In this document: positions 1-6,171 of the stretch, piece after piece
Layout of the letters: the number at the start of each line of letters is the position of its first letter
Position numbering within the stretch: the stretch's first letter is position 1
Assembly: GCA_003157315.1 (NCBI GenBank)
Contig: PMJE01000071.1
Coordinates: 1-6,330 of the forward strand
Direction of reading: 5' to 3'
DNA: 6,330 bases
Source of the DNA: Myxococcales bacterium
GTDB lineage: Bacteria > Myxococcota > Polyangia > Fen-1088
Position numbers and translations under genes: made by a program
Notes under the pieces: model-generated
What the model saw: the letters and a program-made list of their open reading frames with translations, nothing else
Database searches by the model: none
What the model was told of the DNA's origin: nothing

Positions 1-452
1 GACGTCCGGCGCATAGACGCCATCGAACTGACGGCGCATCTATCTCGAACCGCCAAGAGACTTGCCTTCTCTTTCTCAATCTCCAGCTGGTATGCACGGT
101 TGAGCAGGCGACCGAGAGTATCTGTCATGTTCACTAGAGCCGCCACAAGTCCATCGAACGCGAGGTATGCGTAGTCGATCACCGCTGTCGGGTGTGTGAT
201 CTCCAAGGTAGCATCCGGAAGGTCGATACGTAGGCGCTCTGGCCCGGACGATGGTGTAAGAGACCGGCCAATGCCATCGATGCGCTCCCAATCGATACTC
301 TTCAGAATAGTCCAGTGGATGTCAGCGAACATTGCTTTGCGCTTGATGGCGCGAATCAGTGGGTCTATGTCAGCCGAGCTAGCAATTGGATTTCGGGCGC
401 CCAGATTCGGCACGCAAAGCACCTGTTCCAATACAGATAGCCGGTCAGCTAG
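1..452 (-). pseudogene. IS-disrupted partner gene of the DUF4062-NTPase, 3' part (unknown function, runs off left edge)
   Basis: The minus strand reads without a stop from 452 to the window edge (150 codons, starting L-A-D-R-L-S-V-L-E-Q). The composition is protein-like: mixed hydrophobic and charged residues, a segment with I-D-W-E-R-I-D-G-I-G, then a helical stretch around Y-A-Y-L-A-F-D-G-L-V-A-A-L followed by a charged helix with E-I-E-K-E-K. No signal peptide or membrane segment is visible. I do not recognise the family. The frame has no proper start here because an IS1634-type element ends at 453. If the IS and one CTAG are removed, the frame continues into GCT-AGG-GTG, and that GTG overlaps the stop codon of the upstream NTPase gene. 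It was therefore probably the second, translationally coupled gene of the operon, now cut off after about four codons. The same frame is open back to the transposase TAG at 548-546, so weak expression by reinitiation (for example TTG at 431 or GTG at 422) cannot be excluded. The real C-terminus lies outside the window. Confidence 0.75.
449..452. repeat. CTAG target-site duplication, left copy
   Basis: CTAG directly abuts the left inverted repeat and is repeated next to the right one. It is self-palindromic, so it could instead be the outermost part of the inverted repeats. In that case only a 2-bp AG would be shared outside (447-448 and 2312-2313). A 4-bp duplication is shorter than the 5-6 bp usually given for IS1634 elements. 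Confidence 0.6.
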
Positions 453-474
453 CCCCGCGTTTGACAGCTGGAGG
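453..474 (+). repeat. IS left terminal inverted repeat (IRR relative to transposase)
   Basis: This 22-bp end matches the reverse complement of 2286-2307 at 20 of 22 positions. The first 15 bases (CCCCGCGTTTGACAG) are identical. The mismatches are c/t at position 16 and g/a at position 19. The end lies downstream of the transposase stop. Confidence 0.9.
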
Positions 475-499
475 GGTGGAAAAGGTGAGGCAAGAGACT

Positions 500-526
500 G
501 ATCTGATTGGGCGATCTGCAGATCTG
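500..526 (+). repeat. Three GATCTG motifs and a 12-bp palindrome next to the IS left end
   Basis: GATCTG occurs at 500-505, 513-518 and 521-526. The last two sit in or overlap the perfect palindrome GATCTGCAGATC (513-524). This lies between the transposase stop and the left inverted repeat. It may be a subterminal protein-binding site. The three GATC sites would be Dam-methylated in hosts that have Dam. No function is shown by the sequence alone. Confidence 0.45.
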
Positions 527-537
527 GATTGAGAGTG

Positions 538-549
538 CTCTGTGCCTAC
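538..549 (+). repeat. 12-bp direct repeat flanking the transposase gene, copy 1
   Basis: CTCTGTGCCTAC here is identical to 2200-2211. This copy contains the transposase stop codon on the minus strand. The other copy lies 44 bp before the transposase ATG. Confidence 0.5.
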
Positions 550-2156
550 GGATTGGGGCCTGGCAGGACACGAGGAGGGGCAGAAATCTTGAGTGATTTG
601 AATAGGTTCTGTGCCGTAGACGGGAGGACGCCAGTCTCCCAGACGGTCTGTCCCTCGAAGTTCAGCTCCACGGCCCTGCATCGCCGCAGTAGGCGGCGCA
701 CCTGTTCAAATGGCTGTTTGGTTTCTATCTCGACGGCGCGTTCGAGGAGGTAGGCGATCGTGCAAAGGGTGACGTGGGCACGGATGCGTTTGTCGAGGCG
801 GTGATACACCGGACGCAGGTAGGTGCCGTGCTTGAGGCTGCAAAAGGCAGCCTCCACGCGCAGCAGGCCCTTGTAGGCCAGCGCTGCCTGCGCGGGATCG
901 ATCTTGGGATTGCTGACCTCCAGGACGAAAGTGCCGTCGCACTGGGCTTCGCGCTCAAGCTTGTGTTTGTCCAGGGCGAAGGTCCCGTCGTGGTGGCGGG
1001 TGACGAAACGACGGTAGAGACCATGTTCGGTGATTTGCGCGGCGTCGGCACCGGCGTTGACAGCCGCGAGCACGGGACGCATTCGTTCGAGTGCGCCGGT
1101 GCGCAGTTTGAGATCGCGCTCCGCACTTTCGGGCGAGAAGCACACGACCATGCGTTGCTGGCCGACGGTGATGGCCTTGACCATGAGACCCTCGCTGGCC
1201 TTCTGAAATGGCGCGGGGTCAGCGGTGATGGCGGCGCGCAGGCTCTCGGCCGCGCGCAGACGCACGCCCAGGATGTAGTCGAGGCCAGCCGCACGCACGG
1301 AAGCAATGTTGATCGCCGAAGCCATTCCGCGGTCCGCGACCCAAGCGACGTTGCGCAGGCCCATGCGCTTTAGCCTGGCCAGCATGGGCACGACGGTCAG
1401 CGCATCGGAGGTGTCGCCGCTGAAGACGTCCGAGGCGACAGGCAATCCCTGTTGGTCCACGGCGAGCCCCAGCACGATCTGTCTTCTGTCTGGGCGAAGG
1501 TCGCGCGAGTAGCCACGCTGGCGCAGACCATACTGGGCCGGCTCATCGCCGGGGTCGTCGCACTCGAAGTAGGTACTGGTGGTGTCGTAGTAGACGAGTT
1601 CGACACGGTCGAATAGCGAGCGGCGATGCAGGTACAGCGCTTCCTCCAGCGGCTCATGACAGTCGTCGAGGAAGTCCATGGCACGGTACAGGTGCTGGGC
1701 TTGTAAGCCCTCGACCCCAGGGAGATAGGCGTCGTTCTCGAACCAGTCCCAGGCGGCCAGCTTGGAGCCAGGGTCCAGCATTCTGTGCGCGACCATGACG
1801 AACAAGGCGCGTTCGACCGGGGCGTCGTACTTGCGCTGGCGCAAGTGCTTGGCGAAAAACTTGTGCAGGTCGAAGCGACGCCAGAGCGCATCCGCAAGGT
1901 AGACGACGCCGAAGTCGCGAACCTCACCCACTCGTCCACCCTCCGGCACCTGGCCATTTTCAAGATAGCGCGAAAGCGCGAGGACGAGCCGGCGCACCTG
2001 CTCACGGTCAATTTGGTCCACGCGGCCAAGCGGAAGTAGCACGCGGTGACGGGGCTTGCCGACGTCGTCACGAAACGACTCGACGATCTGCGCATATCTG
2101 ACCGGTCGACCGGCCTTCTTCCCTGTTACTACTTCGCGGAGGAACATGGCTTCCAT
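546..2156 (-). CDS. IS1634-family DDE transposase
   Basis: This 536-residue transposase would catalyse cut-and-paste-type movement of the surrounding element through an RNase H-like DDE fold. The N-terminal region (about 5-70, starting F-L-R-E-V-V) is typical of the IS1634 branch of the IS4-related transposases. The catalytic residues can be placed: D191 in YYDTTSTYF, D275 in VADRGM, and E435 in RVEAAFCSLK, with the K442 that sits seven residues after the glutamate. The block G-Y-S-R-D-L-R-P-D (215-223) and the segment L-R-P-V-Y-H-R with following R-A-H-V (447-462) are also family hallmarks. Length is normal and no frameshift is visible. ATG at 2156 is used; a second ATG at 2147 (M4, M-F-L-R) is an equally plausible start because neither has a clear Shine-Dalgarno sequence. 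The stop is TAG at 548-546. The gene points the same way as the host operon, so readthrough transcription from the NTPase gene could reach it. Confidence 0.93.
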   Translation of the reverse strand: MEAMFLREVVTGKKAGRPVRYAQIVESFRDDVGKPRHRVLLPLGRVDQIDREQVRRLVLALSRYLENGQVPEGGRVGEVRDFGVVYLADALWRRFDLHKFFAKHLRQRKYDAPVERALFVMVAHRMLDPGSKLAAWDWFENDAYLPGVEGLQAQHLYRAMDFLDDCHEPLEEALYLHRRSLFDRVELVYYDTTSTYFECDDPGDEPAQYGLRQRGYSRDLRPDRRQIVLGLAVDQQGLPVASDVFSGDTSDALTVVPMLARLKRMGLRNVAWVADRGMASAINIASVRAAGLDYILGVRLRAAESLRAAITADPAPFQKASEGLMVKAITVGQQRMVVCFSPESAERDLKLRTGALERMRPVLAAVNAGADAAQITEHGLYRRFVTRHHDGTFALDKHKLEREAQCDGTFVLEVSNPKIDPAQAALAYKGLLRVEAAFCSLKHGTYLRPVYHRLDKRIRAHVTLCTIAYLLERAVEIETKQPFEQVRRLLRRCRAVELNFEGQTVWETGVLPSTAQNLFKSLKISAPPRVLPGPNP

Positions 2157-2199
2157 GCTGTCGGCAATTGCGTTGCCACGTCAAGCATGCGTCCGCCGC

Positions 2200-2211
2200 C
2201 TCTGTGCCTAC
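2200..2211 (+). repeat. 12-bp direct repeat flanking the transposase gene, copy 2
   Basis: This is an exact copy of the 12 bases at 538-549, in the same orientation, inside the noncoding right part of the IS. A chance match is possible. Confidence 0.5.
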
Positions 2212-2229
2212 ACGTTTTCAGCGTCGTGA

Positions 2230-2266
2230 AGAACGTAAGTCCGCGATTCTCGCGGACTTACGTTCT
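2230..2266. repeat. Perfect 17-bp inverted repeat (hairpin) upstream of the transposase
   Basis: Bases 2230-2246 are exactly complementary to 2250-2266, leaving a 3-nt loop (ttc). The core arm is GAACGTAAGTCCGCG. The hairpin lies inside the IS, between its right end and the transposase ATG, with the stem ending about 74 nt before the ATG. It lacks a T-run on either side, so it is not a standard intrinsic terminator. A strong RNA stem here would form in transcripts entering from the NTPase gene. It could damp transposase expression from outside transcription, as stem structures do in some IS4-group elements. That role is inference. Confidence 0.85.
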
Positions 2267-2285
2267 CTCCACCCCCCAAAAGGGG

Positions 2286-2307
2286 CCTTCAACTGTCAAA
2301 CGCGGGG
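2286..2307 (-). repeat. IS right terminal inverted repeat (IRL relative to transposase)
   Basis: This is the partner of the inverted repeat at 453-474, with 20 of 22 positions identical. Reading inward on the minus strand it contains TTGACA (2299-2294), a perfect -35 hexamer pointing towards the transposase. I see no convincing -10 at 16-18 bp, so a promoter call is not justified. The inward flank has a CCCCTTTTGGGG palindrome (2285-2274). Confidence 0.9.
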
Positions 2308-2311
2308 CTAG
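2308..2311. repeat. CTAG target-site duplication, right copy
   Basis: This is the second copy of CTAG, adjacent to the right inverted repeat. Collapsing the two copies restores one continuous reading frame between GTG at 2320 and the frame at 452-1. That fits a simple insertion without adjacent deletion. Confidence 0.6.
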
Positions 2312-2320
2312 AGCCCTCAC
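2308..2320 (-). pseudogene. 5' stub of the disrupted partner gene (GTG start in GTGA overlap)
   Basis: GTG at 2320-2318 overlaps the TGA stop (2319-2317) of the DUF4062-NTPase gene by the four bases GTGA. Reading on gives M-R-A-L up to the CTAG target. In the present arrangement the frame runs into the IS right end and stops at a TAA at 2260-2258, giving a 20-residue dead-end peptide. In the reconstructed uninterrupted sequence it is in frame with the 150-codon frame at 452-1. The start assignment is inference. It is supported by frame agreement, the typical overlap geometry and an upstream purine-rich sequence. Confidence 0.6.
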
Positions 2321-5300
2321 TCGTCGTCCCCTTCTTCCTCCCACTGTTCTCTGTCCTGCCGAATGTGGTCCTCAGCAGCCCTAACAAGCGAGTCATAGAA
2401 ATATCCTGCGGGCTGATTCGAGTAGACGTGCGCAAGTTTCTGGGCCTGCTCTTTGTCGTGCAGGTGCCGTGGCGCAGGCTGGCCAGGTGTGCTGGTGTAG
2501 GTCCCGTTGGTTGCAAGACAATACAGTTCGCTCATCGCGCTCTTTAGGCAATCGTCGCCGCATCTAGCCGCAGCCGCAAGGAGTTCAGCCATCAATTCAT
2601 GGTCCGAGAAGATGATGCCGTGATTGAACCCTCTAAGGAGATGAGCAGCTCCGACGATTCTGTTCGCGTCACCCGAGGACAGCCATTCCCCTAGGACCGC
2701 AAGACCGCCTAGCAGATTCCTCGCACAGACATGGAATAGCTCAGGGAGCCAGAACCGCGCCGCAGAACTCGCCTCCAAGAGGGCATCACGAATCATTCGA
2801 AGAATGTCAGGGTACTCTTTTGCCTGCTCCAGGTCGGGCAGATTCAGGCCATGCCCGCCGTAGGGGATTGGTGTGAATCGATGTCCTCGCTTGTCGGATT
2901 CTCCATCATCATCCCACAAAATACGGCTGAGAAGCATCTCGACCGTTTGCCTCGGACGTCTGGTTGAGGCGAAGGCAACGAACTCCAGAATGTCGAAGCC
3001 ACCGCCCTCTATGGAGTTGAGCCGCGTGATCCGTCCCAAAAGGGTGTCGATATCGGTGTCAGACAGTGCATTCGGATCGAGACCAAACTTGGGATGCAGG
3101 GCATTGAGAACTGCATCACCAAGCGCGGGATCGTCACCCCAGTCGATGCTCGTGAGGATCTTCAGGGCTTCTGAAAGAGATTCTCCGGGGCAACGGCGAA
3201 GGGCGTCCGGGACCATCCTGCGCACGATTGGTGAACGGTCTTGGCTCAGTTTTCGAACCATCTCGATGACTTCTTTGGGCGGCACGGGACGGGCAACTAT
3301 CCACTGGGCGGCATCCAAGGCGTACATCCTCAGGGGATCCTGTGCAGCCATGCTCAGTTGCGTGAGCACCTCTACGGCGAGCTCAGGCTGCCGTTCGTAA
3401 GCGTCTAGAATTGCGGGCCGGAGAAGACGCCAACCATCCTCATCGGATGCAATCAGCGCACGAATCACCTCCTCGCTATGCTCTGGCTTCATTGCGACTA
3501 TCGAACGAATGAGTTGGTCCGGGTACGCCTGAGTTCCGAAATCGCGCAGGCGGCCGATGGACGTCAAGACCGTTCCAACAGTTGCCGCAGGCGTTCTGTG
3601 CTCATCCCATAAGGCCTCAGCAGCTCGATCGCAGAGATCACAAATTCTCTTGTGCTCCGCCTCGATATTGTCGAGTCGTTCCTCCCACGGTGCTCCAACC
3701 AAGAGGTAAAGAAGTCCCTCGTTTGGCCCTGGTGGACAGCCTTTCCACGCATCAGCCAACATTGGAGCGATCTCGGGCCACCGTTCCTGATGGGGCACGC
3801 GGAGCTCTCTACGCGCGAAGAAGCGCACGATCTCGGATGGCGCTGCAGTGGCGATCTCCCGAAGTGCATCAATCGCAAACGCCGTCTCCTGTTGCCAAGC
3901 AGCCACCTCGCCTTCTTCAGGTATGCCCGTTATCGGGCCTCGCGGAGTGCACAGCAGTTGGGCCAACTCGTGCAGGGCAACCTTGGCCTCTGCTAGCCTT
4001 CCAACCAAAGCGATGCGCTTTAGGCCTTCCATGATATTGCGTCGGCGATCGGCTATCTGAGGGAGATACTTGGCCAGGGAGAACTCCCCCCATGTTATCT
4101 GGAGCCTGTTCGACCTGTTCCATTCCCCCACCCGACGTAGCGCAAGGCCCAGTCCGGATACGGCCCAGGGGGCATCCTCCTTGCGATCTACATCGTGAAG
4201 TCGTCCTAGCAGAAACTCGATAGTCTGGACGTGCACCCCGCGTGGTGATTGCCAATCGGATCTGTCCTTGTACTTCAACAGGTCCTCGAATCGTCGTCTT
4301 GGGTGCTCGGGATACTGATTCGTTGGCCGGTGGTCGAGGAGCGCGGCTTTCCAGAGCCTCGCGACACAGCGTCCGGTGAAGTCCGGATGCCCTGCAATGA
4401 ATCCGAATAGTTCCGTGAGCGTCCGGTTGACCATAGCCGGCGTGTCTTCCAACCCCCATTCCGCCAACTGAGAATCGGCAGGAGCGTTTGGATGGTCGTC
4501 TAGCCATTCGGCAATGTCGAGTACCTCGGCAGGGGCAAACAGGGCAGCCCGCTTGAGCTTCCCGAGGAGCTCTGCCCGCTGCCTATTCGTTGCCCGTGGC
4601 AGAAATGCCATCCTCTCTTCCCAAATCCTGGCGAGGACTGCGTCGTGTTTGGCATCGGTAGCGGCCCGCCAGTCGAGTTCAGCGGCGTTGGCAAGAATGT
4701 TCTCCAGCAGCGCAGGAAAGATCTCGATCATCTTCTCGACAAATCTAGTCGGCCTGCCGTTTTCATCGACCGCCGCCTTGTAGAGCAGATGATCCCCGAG
4801 AACATCTGGGCTGACTCGTACCTGTCGCCCTCGACGCATCAAGAAGCCGGCAGTTTCTAATTTGGCGAGCAGCAGGCGCAACTCATGTTCCGCCAACTCG
4901 ACGAAGTCAGAGAGCCTGGCCACAAACGCGTCGTCTCCCAAGAGCGCTGGACCGACGCAGGCAATGACCTCAAGAACCTTCCTGCGGACCCGCACATTCT
5001 CGTCCTTGAAGATTGGGTCATCGAGAAGGTGGTCAAGAACGACAGTGCGAAATCCCTCTTCCGTCTGTCCGAGGACCTCCGGAAATACCTTCTTAGCCAC
5101 AATGCACCGGGAGCCGACACGGATGATCAGAGGGTTCCGGTCAGCCAATCTCACTAGGCGATCTCCAAGGTATCCAAAGTCCGATCCTAGGCAGCATCGC
5201 GCCAGCTCTTCCGCGTCCTCCTTGGCCAAGGGAGAAAGGTCAATGCTTGGCGGTGGATCGTCACCTATCAACGAACGTATCGATGGTCGGAGAATTTCTA

Positions 5301-6171
5301 CTGCACTTGGCCTGCACGAAACGATGTAGCGAGTCCGATCATTCTGCTGGCGACAGGCTGCAATGAGCTGGCCCAAGTCCGGTCTCCGATGGGCGTCGTC
5401 AAAGACAAGAATCGTCGGCCCATCTGGCAGCCGATTGACGTCTCCGGAGTTCCACTGCGCGTCAGGTGCGACAAAAAGGATCTTGGGGGCGCCAGAATCA
5501 GTGCCGACGGCTTTCGCCGCCTCCAAGACGAGTCTACTCTTCCCACTGCCACCAGGCGCCTTGAGTACAAGCAGGTCACCAGTGCCTTTGATGAAGTCCA
5601 CTAGCTGCTGCAGCGGCTCGCGCCTCCCAACAAATGGCCCCTCGTGATTAAAGAGCGGTGGCTTTTCTCCCAGTTGGAGAGCAAAAGCCAGATCGTAGCG
5701 TTGGAAAAGGGAGAATCGGCCAATCAACCGCCCCTGGCGATCGGCCTTGTTGATCGAGGCCAACACCTCCACTGGCAAGTCCTCGCTCCTAGACACCGTA
5801 TCGTAGGTAGCATCGTTTCCGACCTCGGCTAGGAAATCGTCAAGCCTCTTCCTCTGCTCGGTGCCCAGCCCAGAATCCGCCGGCACACTGAACGCCAGCA
5901 CTGGGATGCAAAGCCGTCTGGCCTCGCGAAACTCCCTATGGGTGTAGGAGATCCCCTCCGGGAGTTCTGAACCGTAGCGAGGCCCGACGATGAGCACGAC
6001 GACGTCTGACTTCCGGACCTCACCGAGGCAAACATCGATGGGAGGGTCAGCCTGCGCTCCGAACTCCTCCATCGCGCCGACATCATAGTCGGCCTTGCGC
6101 AGACCTCGCATCAGCCGGCTTCGCGGCTCTTCAAAGCCTTTGGACACAGAGCTGACAAAGACCCTAATCAT
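2317..6171 (-). CDS. DUF4062 (TIR-like) - STAND P-loop NTPase, probable defence or stress sensor
   Basis: This is a 1284-residue, probably cytosolic protein with no signal peptide or membrane segment. Residues 1-97 form a DUF4062 domain: strand I-R-V-F-V-S-S at the start, M-E-E-F-G-A at 34-39, V-C-L-G-E-V-R-K-S-D-V at 47-57, the V-V-V-L-I-V-G-P-R-Y-G core at 57-67, and Y-T-H-R-E-F-R-E-A at 76-84. DUF4062 is regarded as TIR-like and is often an N-terminal module on signalling NTPases. Residues 180-470 are a STAND-type NTPase: entry motif FVGRREPLQQL (180-190), Walker A APGGSGKS (205-212, K211), Walker B ILVFDDAH (254-261), sensor-like RYIVSCRPS (281-289), RNPLII (345-350) and a winged-helix-like end with VSPDVLGDHLL (453-463). 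From about 470 to 1284 only helical, HEAT-like sequence is evident (clearest about 885-1010), which by analogy would be the sensor. The tail is very acidic. ATG 6171 is fixed by an in-frame TGA 15 nt upstream and by the domain starting at M1. It lacks a clear Shine-Dalgarno sequence. By analogy with Avs-like STAND proteins, ligand binding would trigger NTP-driven oligomerisation and activate the N-terminal effector. The stop overlaps the GTG of the disrupted partner gene. Confidence 0.9.
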   Translation of the reverse strand: MIRVFVSSVSKGFEEPRSRLMRGLRKADYDVGAMEEFGAQADPPIDVCLGEVRKSDVVVLIVGPRYGSELPEGISYTHREFREARRLCIPVLAFSVPADSGLGTEQRKRLDDFLAEVGNDATYDTVSRSEDLPVEVLASINKADRQGRLIGRFSLFQRYDLAFALQLGEKPPLFNHEGPFVGRREPLQQLVDFIKGTGDLLVLKAPGGSGKSRLVLEAAKAVGTDSGAPKILFVAPDAQWNSGDVNRLPDGPTILVFDDAHRRPDLGQLIAACRQQNDRTRYIVSCRPSAVEILRPSIRSLIGDDPPPSIDLSPLAKEDAEELARCCLGSDFGYLGDRLVRLADRNPLIIRVGSRCIVAKKVFPEVLGQTEEGFRTVVLDHLLDDPIFKDENVRVRRKVLEVIACVGPALLGDDAFVARLSDFVELAEHELRLLLAKLETAGFLMRRGRQVRVSPDVLGDHLLYKAAVDENGRPTRFVEKMIEIFPALLENILANAAELDWRAATDAKHDAVLARIWEERMAFLPRATNRQRAELLGKLKRAALFAPAEVLDIAEWLDDHPNAPADSQLAEWGLEDTPAMVNRTLTELFGFIAGHPDFTGRCVARLWKAALLDHRPTNQYPEHPRRRFEDLLKYKDRSDWQSPRGVHVQTIEFLLGRLHDVDRKEDAPWAVSGLGLALRRVGEWNRSNRLQITWGEFSLAKYLPQIADRRRNIMEGLKRIALVGRLAEAKVALHELAQLLCTPRGPITGIPEEGEVAAWQQETAFAIDALREIATAAPSEIVRFFARRELRVPHQERWPEIAPMLADAWKGCPPGPNEGLLYLLVGAPWEERLDNIEAEHKRICDLCDRAAEALWDEHRTPAATVGTVLTSIGRLRDFGTQAYPDQLIRSIVAMKPEHSEEVIRALIASDEDGWRLLRPAILDAYERQPELAVEVLTQLSMAAQDPLRMYALDAAQWIVARPVPPKEVIEMVRKLSQDRSPIVRRMVPDALRRCPGESLSEALKILTSIDWGDDPALGDAVLNALHPKFGLDPNALSDTDIDTLLGRITRLNSIEGGGFDILEFVAFASTRRPRQTVEMLLSRILWDDDGESDKRGHRFTPIPYGGHGLNLPDLEQAKEYPDILRMIRDALLEASSAARFWLPELFHVCARNLLGGLAVLGEWLSSGDANRIVGAAHLLRGFNHGIIFSDHELMAELLAAAARCGDDCLKSAMSELYCLATNGTYTSTPGQPAPRHLHDKEQAQKLAHVYSNQPAGYFYDSLVRAAEDHIRQDREQWEEEGDDE
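2328..2340 (-). promoter_or_regulatory. Ribosome-binding sequence for the disrupted partner gene
   Basis: Within the last codons of the NTPase gene the minus strand reads GAGGAAGAAGGGG. AAGGGG lies 7 nt before the GTG at 2320. This supports that GTG as a real start within the GTGA overlap. The purine run also encodes the acidic C-terminal tail (Q-W-E-E-E-G-D-D-E), so part of the signal may simply be coding bias. Confidence 0.4.

What the first reader, a model, noticed from the sequence alone, without database searches (positions are those of the whole stretch)
1..2320. IS1634 insertion splits a translationally coupled partner gene of the DUF4062-NTPase
The minus-strand frame at 452-1 is open for 150 codons but has no start. 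Removing the IS (453-2307) and one CTAG joins it in frame to GTG at 2320, which overlaps the NTPase stop as GTGA and has AAGGGG 7 nt upstream. This implies a conserved two-gene system, with the second gene inactivated here about four codons in. The gene is easily missed because the frame has no start codon and is cut by the window edge. Its disruption next to an intact, potentially toxic NTPase suggests the partner is not a required antitoxin, or that the system is already silenced.
Basis: partly seen in the sequence, partly recalled or inferred. Interest (0 to 1): 0.75.

Follow-up and report, generated by a model that had tools for sequence, protein, structure and literature searches.

The report
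Insertion-broken HEPN-like partner of NTPase
A mobile element has landed four codons into a small unnamed gene that, in every related copy we could locate, sits directly behind a large TIR-like immune-type NTPase and looks like an RNA-cutting (HEPN) partner, so this copy is the wreck of an unrecognised two-gene, probably antiphage, system.

Summary
An IS1634-family element (453-2307, CTAG on both sides) sits at codon 4 of a gene starting at GTG 2320, overlapping the NTPase stop. Relative P0001 (89% identical) begins VRALTDRLSVLEQ, collinear with the two flanks. In 5 of 5 located uninterrupted copies the gene directly follows a relative of the NTPase with stop/start overlap (GTGA x3, ATGA x1, TGATG x1); distances of the two proteins correlate (17 pairs, r 0.89, 0 of 10,000 permutations).

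New here: (1) The partner is a ~241-residue family with no passing Pfam or NCBIfam model, probably a HEPN ribonuclease: RGxCQH (Rx4H) in 104 of 114 members, where HEPN proteins carry it; both AlphaFold models match HepT best, though helical bundles score close. (2) Family similarity stops at window position 24, before the motif, so this copy is broken twice. (3) DUF4062 is published as a TIR-like NADase in antiphage defence, so the unit may pair a STAND/NADase sensor with a HEPN RNase. The 'not an antitoxin' inference fits, but function was not tested. The insertion is ordinary; the conserved pair is the interest.

The parts
2317..6171 (-). Gene 1: 1284-residue DUF4062 - STAND NTPase (nSTAND5-like) - helical-repeat protein; full length, motifs kept
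   Evidence: ORF; PF13271 DUF4062 3e-23 at residues 3-84, PF25199 nSTAND_NTPase5 32.1 bits against a cut-off of 34, HEAT_2 weak; keeps 147 of 149 columns invariant in the other 21 rows of A3; 88% identical to P0061
5920..6165 (-). DUF4062 (TIR-like) domain; invariant Glu80 in SYTHREF is the candidate catalytic residue
   Evidence: domain; E80 in the list of invariant columns of 22 rows; position; equating E80 with the published catalytic Glu is inference
5533..5553 (-). Walker A (GGSGKSR, residues 207-213)
2328..2333 (-). AAGGGG, possible ribosome-binding site for gene 2, 7 nt before GTG
2308..2320 (-). Gene 2 (HEPN-like partner), first four codons; GTG 2320-2318 overlaps the NTPase stop TGA (2319-2317) as GTGA
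   Evidence: equals residues 1-4 of P0001 (VRAL)
453..2307 (.). IS1634-family insertion sequence, 1855 bp
   Evidence: inverted ends, transposase family
546..2156 (-). IS1634-family transposase, 536 aa
   Evidence: NF033559 4.8e-105, 352 bits; PF01609
453..474 (+). left terminal inverted repeat of the IS
2286..2307 (-). right terminal inverted repeat of the IS
449..452 (.). CTAG, left copy of the likely 4-bp target duplication
2308..2311 (.). CTAG, right copy of the likely 4-bp target duplication
24..452 (-). Gene 2, residues 4-146 (127 of 143 residues identical to P0001); ends before the Rx4H motif (P0001 residues 168-173)
   Evidence: tblastn
1..23 (-). sequence beyond the second break; unlike the family in the reading frame; nature unknown

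Best explanation
The window holds a degraded copy of a two-gene immune-type unit. Gene 1 is a STAND (NLR-like) NTPase with an N-terminal TIR-like DUF4062 domain and a C-terminal helical-repeat region. Gene 2, whose start overlaps the stop of gene 1 (so probably made with it), is a HEPN-like protein with an Rx4H site. Most likely mechanism (inferred): the repeat region senses a phage component, the NTPase oligomerises, the DUF4062 domain destroys NAD+, and the HEPN partner acts with it as an RNase effector, stopping infected cells. Here an IS1634-family element entered gene 2 at codon 4, and gene 2 departs from its family again before the HEPN site, so the HEPN arm is lost while the NTPase stays intact. 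Shown: both genes, their conserved adjacency and overlap, co-inheritance, the insertion and the second break. Inferred: HEPN fold, RNase activity, translational coupling, defence role. The order of the two breaks is unknown.
Confidence: 0.62

Rival explanations
1. The partner is a regulator or chaperone that restrains or licenses the NTPase (antitoxin-like), not an effector. Its loss here then means that the NTPase is tolerated only because it is silent or needs a trigger.
For: Overlap with gene 1 in 5 of 5 loci and co-inheritance suit a complex; no activity has been measured.
Against: The Arg and His of an Rx4H site are invariant in 41 of 41 and 74 of 74 aligned members, unexpected for a mere scaffold; the window keeps a full-length NTPase with 147 of 149 invariant columns without the partner.
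Confidence: 0.15
2. The partner is a helical protein unrelated to HEPN, for instance an adaptor or sensor for gene 1; Rx4H is a structural motif.
Against: HepT is first in both models and nearly all of it is aligned; further HEPN chains (7aex, 2hsb by their titles; 1ufb, 5yep and the Roquin chains as recalled) appear in the lists; the motif position and the weak PF18730 hits agree.
Confidence: 0.15
3. The breaks are assembly faults and the source cell carries an intact gene.
For: No whole genome is held for the window, the second break lies 24 bases from its edge, and many database members are shortened.
Against: The IS has matched ends, a full-length transposase and CTAG on both sides exactly at a collinear point, as in a real insertion; P0002, which the tool marks as the window's own protein, continues past the edge in sequence unlike the family.
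Confidence: 0.08

Closest known systems
Swarozyc (DUF4062 antiphage NADase; PMC13174449: abstract, part 1 of 2 of Results, and Discussion read)
   Same: N-terminal DUF4062 (TIR-like) domain with a conserved Glu; bacterial; modular sensor part
   Different: The KpSwz protein studied there has an auxiliary winged-helix domain that binds the phage portal; ours has a STAND NTPase and a long helical-repeat region, plus an overlapping partner gene. The paper mentions operons with diverse enzymes; the word HEPN does not occur in its main text
HEPN_Cthe2314 (PF18730) and the wider HEPN RNase superfamily (PMC3710099, passages)
   Same: Rx4H at the end of the third helix of a helical bundle; best though sub-threshold Pfam hit
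   Different: Below cut-off; Gly after the Arg; long loop between helices 3 and 4; the 2013 table lists 'none detected' for architecture and operons of Cthe_2314, here a fixed neighbour with a DUF4062-STAND gene
MntA-HepT toxin-antitoxin (6m6u by title; 7bxo taken as the same system from recall)
   Same: First structural match of the partner is the helical chain (HepT), nearly whole domain
   Different: Here the neighbour is a 1284-residue DUF4062-NTPase, not a nucleotidyltransferase antitoxin
STAND/NLR-type bacterial immune NTPases
   Same: Effector-like N-terminus, P-loop NTPase, repeat C-terminus
   Different: No PADLOC model matches convincingly (best E 0.026)
IS1634-family insertion sequences (PMC2266710, passages)
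   Same: Transposase family, element length within 1500-2000
   Different: Published direct repeats usually 5-6 bp (long and variable in two elements); here 4 bp, palindromic CTAG

Membership tests
IS1634 insertion sequence family | IS1634-type transposase above the curated cut-off | tested here: met
   NF033559 352 bits, cut-off 100
IS1634 insertion sequence family | terminal inverted repeats and target duplication of 5-6 bp | tested here: inconclusive
   Inverted ends met; duplication is 4 bp (CTAG), shorter than the 5-6 in the family table, though two members are known to differ
DUF4062 TIR-like NADases | DUF4062 domain | tested here: met
   PF13271 82.2 bits, cut-off 24.7
DUF4062 TIR-like NADases | conserved catalytic Glu and NAD+ hydrolysis | not testable with these tools
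   Glu80 is among the invariant columns of 22 rows; its identity with E97 of KpSwz was not aligned; activity not measurable here
Swarozyc system | DUF4062 protein that defends against phage by abortive infection | not tested
   Needs experiment; architecture differs, so it is not filed as Swarozyc
STAND NTPase | Walker A and B in an nSTAND-type NTPase domain | tested here: inconclusive
   GGSGKS and FDDAHRR kept; PF25199 32.1 bits against a cut-off of 34 for the window protein; 48 of 50 relatives carry PF25199 in the database table
HEPN superfamily | Rx4-6H motif at the end of helix 3 | tested here: met
   RGxCQH in 104 of 114 proteins; of the ten without it, nine were looked at and end or leave the family before the motif is complete, P0057 (100 residues) was not. 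Position in models against the description. Seen in relatives; the window's copy ends before it
HEPN superfamily | curated profile match | tested here: not met
   PF18730 below cut-off; hence HEPN-like, not filed as a PF18730 member
HEPN superfamily | four-helix HEPN fold | tested here: inconclusive
HEPN/MNT toxin-antitoxin | adjacent MNT nucleotidyltransferase antitoxin | tested here: not met
   The upstream overlapping neighbour is the DUF4062-NTPase in 5 of 5 loci; the genes on the other side were tested only in part

The most novel reading that the evidence does not exclude
An unrecognised two-effector immune system, seen in Planctomycetota and possibly elsewhere: a TIR-like-NADase STAND receptor whose activation also switches on a co-translated HEPN RNase, so that one sensor triggers NAD+ depletion and RNA cleavage together; IS capture of the HEPN gene marks loss of one arm.
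Probability: 0.4. Interest if true: 0.68.

Novelty: new variant of a known kind. Interest (0 to 1): 0.5.

Why it matters
It points to a second gene for a branch of the DUF4062 (TIR-like NADase) proteins, which run from bacterial defence to human TEP1 (PMC13174449). A STAND receptor with a NADase head and a separate HEPN partner would let one ask directly whether one sensor can drive two effector chemistries. The partner family has no passing Pfam or NCBIfam model and, where a source names it, it is called a hypothetical protein. The IS insertion itself is ordinary.

Tried and rejected
Plasmid and phage collections gave no match to the partner; for the NTPase, 13 plasmid records match, each under 60% identity, one covering 86% at 22.6%. 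Viral contigs: no confirmed relative of the partner or of the NTPase. IS ends in viral contigs: none; IS DNA in plasmids at near identity: none. PDB by sequence: two hits at E above 1, not meaningful. Foldseek: nothing below E 0.001 for either model.

Second break as a simple frame slip: the tail of P0002 matches no family member in its own frame (best E 2.3). I suspected an IS91-like transposase in another frame, from memory; ten random back-translations of that tail gave no such Pfam hit. Rejected for want of evidence.

I briefly thought that several broken members break at the same residue (around SSL, residue 146-148); one search shows departures from about residue 100 to 192 with only a loose cluster, so I make no claim.

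Profile comparison with PF18730 members: L048 4% probability, L049 2%, transposase control 0.5%; a three-row PF18730 alignment was too poor to use.

G732 carries a distant DUF4062-NTPase (28% identical over residues 2-608, contig with Ns inside the gene) and no partner, so the partner seems tied to the near clade.

Papers: DUF4062 with STAND and defense gave 5, the name Swarozyc 0 (it may be printed with an accent), HEPN with TIR domain, antiphage and STAND gave 11, seen as a listing only, IS1634 with target site duplication gave 2.

Full report
Observation. The minus-strand frame from 452 down to 3 is open for 150 codons; a TTG at 431 is the first of the usual start codons inside it. At the other side of the element, GTG 2320-2318 overlaps the NTPase stop as GTGA and lies 7 nt after AAGGGG. 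The 1855-bp element between has 22-base inverted ends (26 with the CTAG; 92% complementary), CTAG on both sides, and a 536-residue transposase scoring 352 bits against the NCBIfam IS1634 model (cut-off 100). It resembles, at 31 to 35% identity in the rows shown, plasmid genes mostly annotated as IS1634 family. The IS1634 family usually makes 5-6 bp duplications (PMC2266710, passages); here it is 4 bp.

Is the split gene real? The left frame has 60 homologues among 200 scored candidates. The nearest, P0001 (244 residues; 127 of 143 aligned residues identical), starts V-R-A-L-T-D-R-L-S-V-L-E-Q. The right flank of the element encodes residues 1-4 of that protein and the left flank residues 4-146, with the CTAG as the shared stretch; no residue is missing or added. 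A 2-bp duplication with CTAG as part of the element would also keep the frame but would lack two residues that P0001, P0003 and P0004 have (my reasoning from those sequences).

Is it a two-gene system? A scan of the GTDB contigs with the partner alignment gave three loci, one Schlesneria MAG and two Phycisphaerae-group MAGs. Two more came from a draw of 397 genomes of the class of G002. In 5 of 5 the partner directly follows a relative of the NTPase on the same strand, with overlap: L001, L002 and L042 GTGA, L043 ATGA, L003 TGATG. In L002, L003 and L042 a contig end cuts the front of the NTPase gene; G002 carries the missing front on another contig. The loci were found through the partner, so this shows that the partner goes with the NTPase; the reverse rests on the draws. 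In 392 genomes of the phylum of G001, 101 have some match to the NTPase alignment (apart from G001, partial matches to DUF4062, P-loop or repeat stretches), only the centre G001 itself has a full-length one, and it alone has the partner. In the class draw, 4 of 397 pass E 1e-60: the centre G002 and two new genomes, G443 and G736, have the partner; the fourth (G732) is a distant relative (28% identity) without it. In these draws at most 2 (NTPase) or 7 (partner) candidates per genome were scored, and the two draws share some genomes. In the protein collection, 12 of 47 NTPase clusters share an exact longest-contig length with a partner cluster, against 0 to 1 at nine shifted lengths (P0062, P0109 and P0110 left out; 11 of the 12 also share a source label, P0070/P0142 does not). 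The unit is rare in the genomes sampled, tightly linked and co-inherited.

What is the NTPase? DUF4062 (PF13271), an nSTAND5-like NTPase just under cut-off, and a weak HEAT hit. The window's protein keeps 147 of 149 columns that are invariant in the other 21 rows; Walker A, FDDAHRR and Glu80 are kept. PMC13174449 (abstract, part 1 of 2 of Results and the Discussion read) reports that DUF4062 is a TIR-like NADase and that a DUF4062 protein (Swarozyc) gives antiphage defence by NAD+ depletion; it notes operons with diverse enzymes. The word HEPN does not occur in its main text. Searches for DUF4062 with HEPN found 0 papers and for DUF4062 alone 9, in the open-licence library only; HEPN with STAND NTPase gave 6, of which I saw passages of two: PMC8195603 mentions HEPN as an effector fused to an inactive STAND module; PMC7159879 was of no help for HEPN. 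PMC3710099's table lists HEPN fusions to STAND-ATPases.

State of the copy here. Similarity to P0001 stops at window position 24 (residue 146), before the motif at 168-173. P0002, marked as the window's own protein, continues 22 residues beyond the window edge in sequence unlike the family and then ends; whether at a stop codon or a contig end is not told. Gene 2 is thus broken twice; what the second break is, and which came first, cannot be told. An intact NTPase beside a dead partner fits a partner that is an effector or accessory rather than an antidote, but a silent operon would look the same.

Setting. Of the genes beside the pair that were tested (ten proteins per library, nine of them the same in both), those with a Pfam match lie in three of the five loci: methionine synthase (L002), a zinc ABC transporter and an IS110 transposase (L043), an acetyl xylan esterase and HlyD-type proteins (L001). 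PADLOC matched only the ABC transporter ATPase, which I take as spurious. The defence role therefore rests on domain content, not on a defence island.

Verdict. Observation confirmed; two-gene reading confirmed; antitoxin reasoning only consistent. The insertion is ordinary; the HEPN-like partner of a DUF4062-STAND protein is a new variant of a known kind.

Noticed in passing
window 1-23 (minus strand): The partner gene leaves its family at position 24; P0002 shows 22 further residues past the edge that are unlike the family and then ends: a second break of unknown kind.
   Followed up: partly
partner family proteins P0013, P0036, P0043, P0053, P0054, P0055, P0060, P0151, P0152, P0164: Ten database members leave the family sequence between residues ~100 and 192, six of them (P0036, P0043, P0053, P0054, P0055, P0164) before the Rx4H motif is complete; recurrent gene breakage or sequencing errors.
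   Followed up: partly
L047 (G732 contig 55): A distant DUF4062-NTPase (28% identity) without the partner gene, suggesting that the partner joined only one branch.
   Followed up: partly
L043 5664-6731 (+): An IS110-family transposase gene lies about 0.7 kb beyond the 3' end of the partner gene in another copy of the unit.
   Followed up: no
window 453-2307: IS1634-family element with a 4-bp palindromic CTAG duplication, shorter than the 5-6 bp listed for the family.
   Followed up: partly
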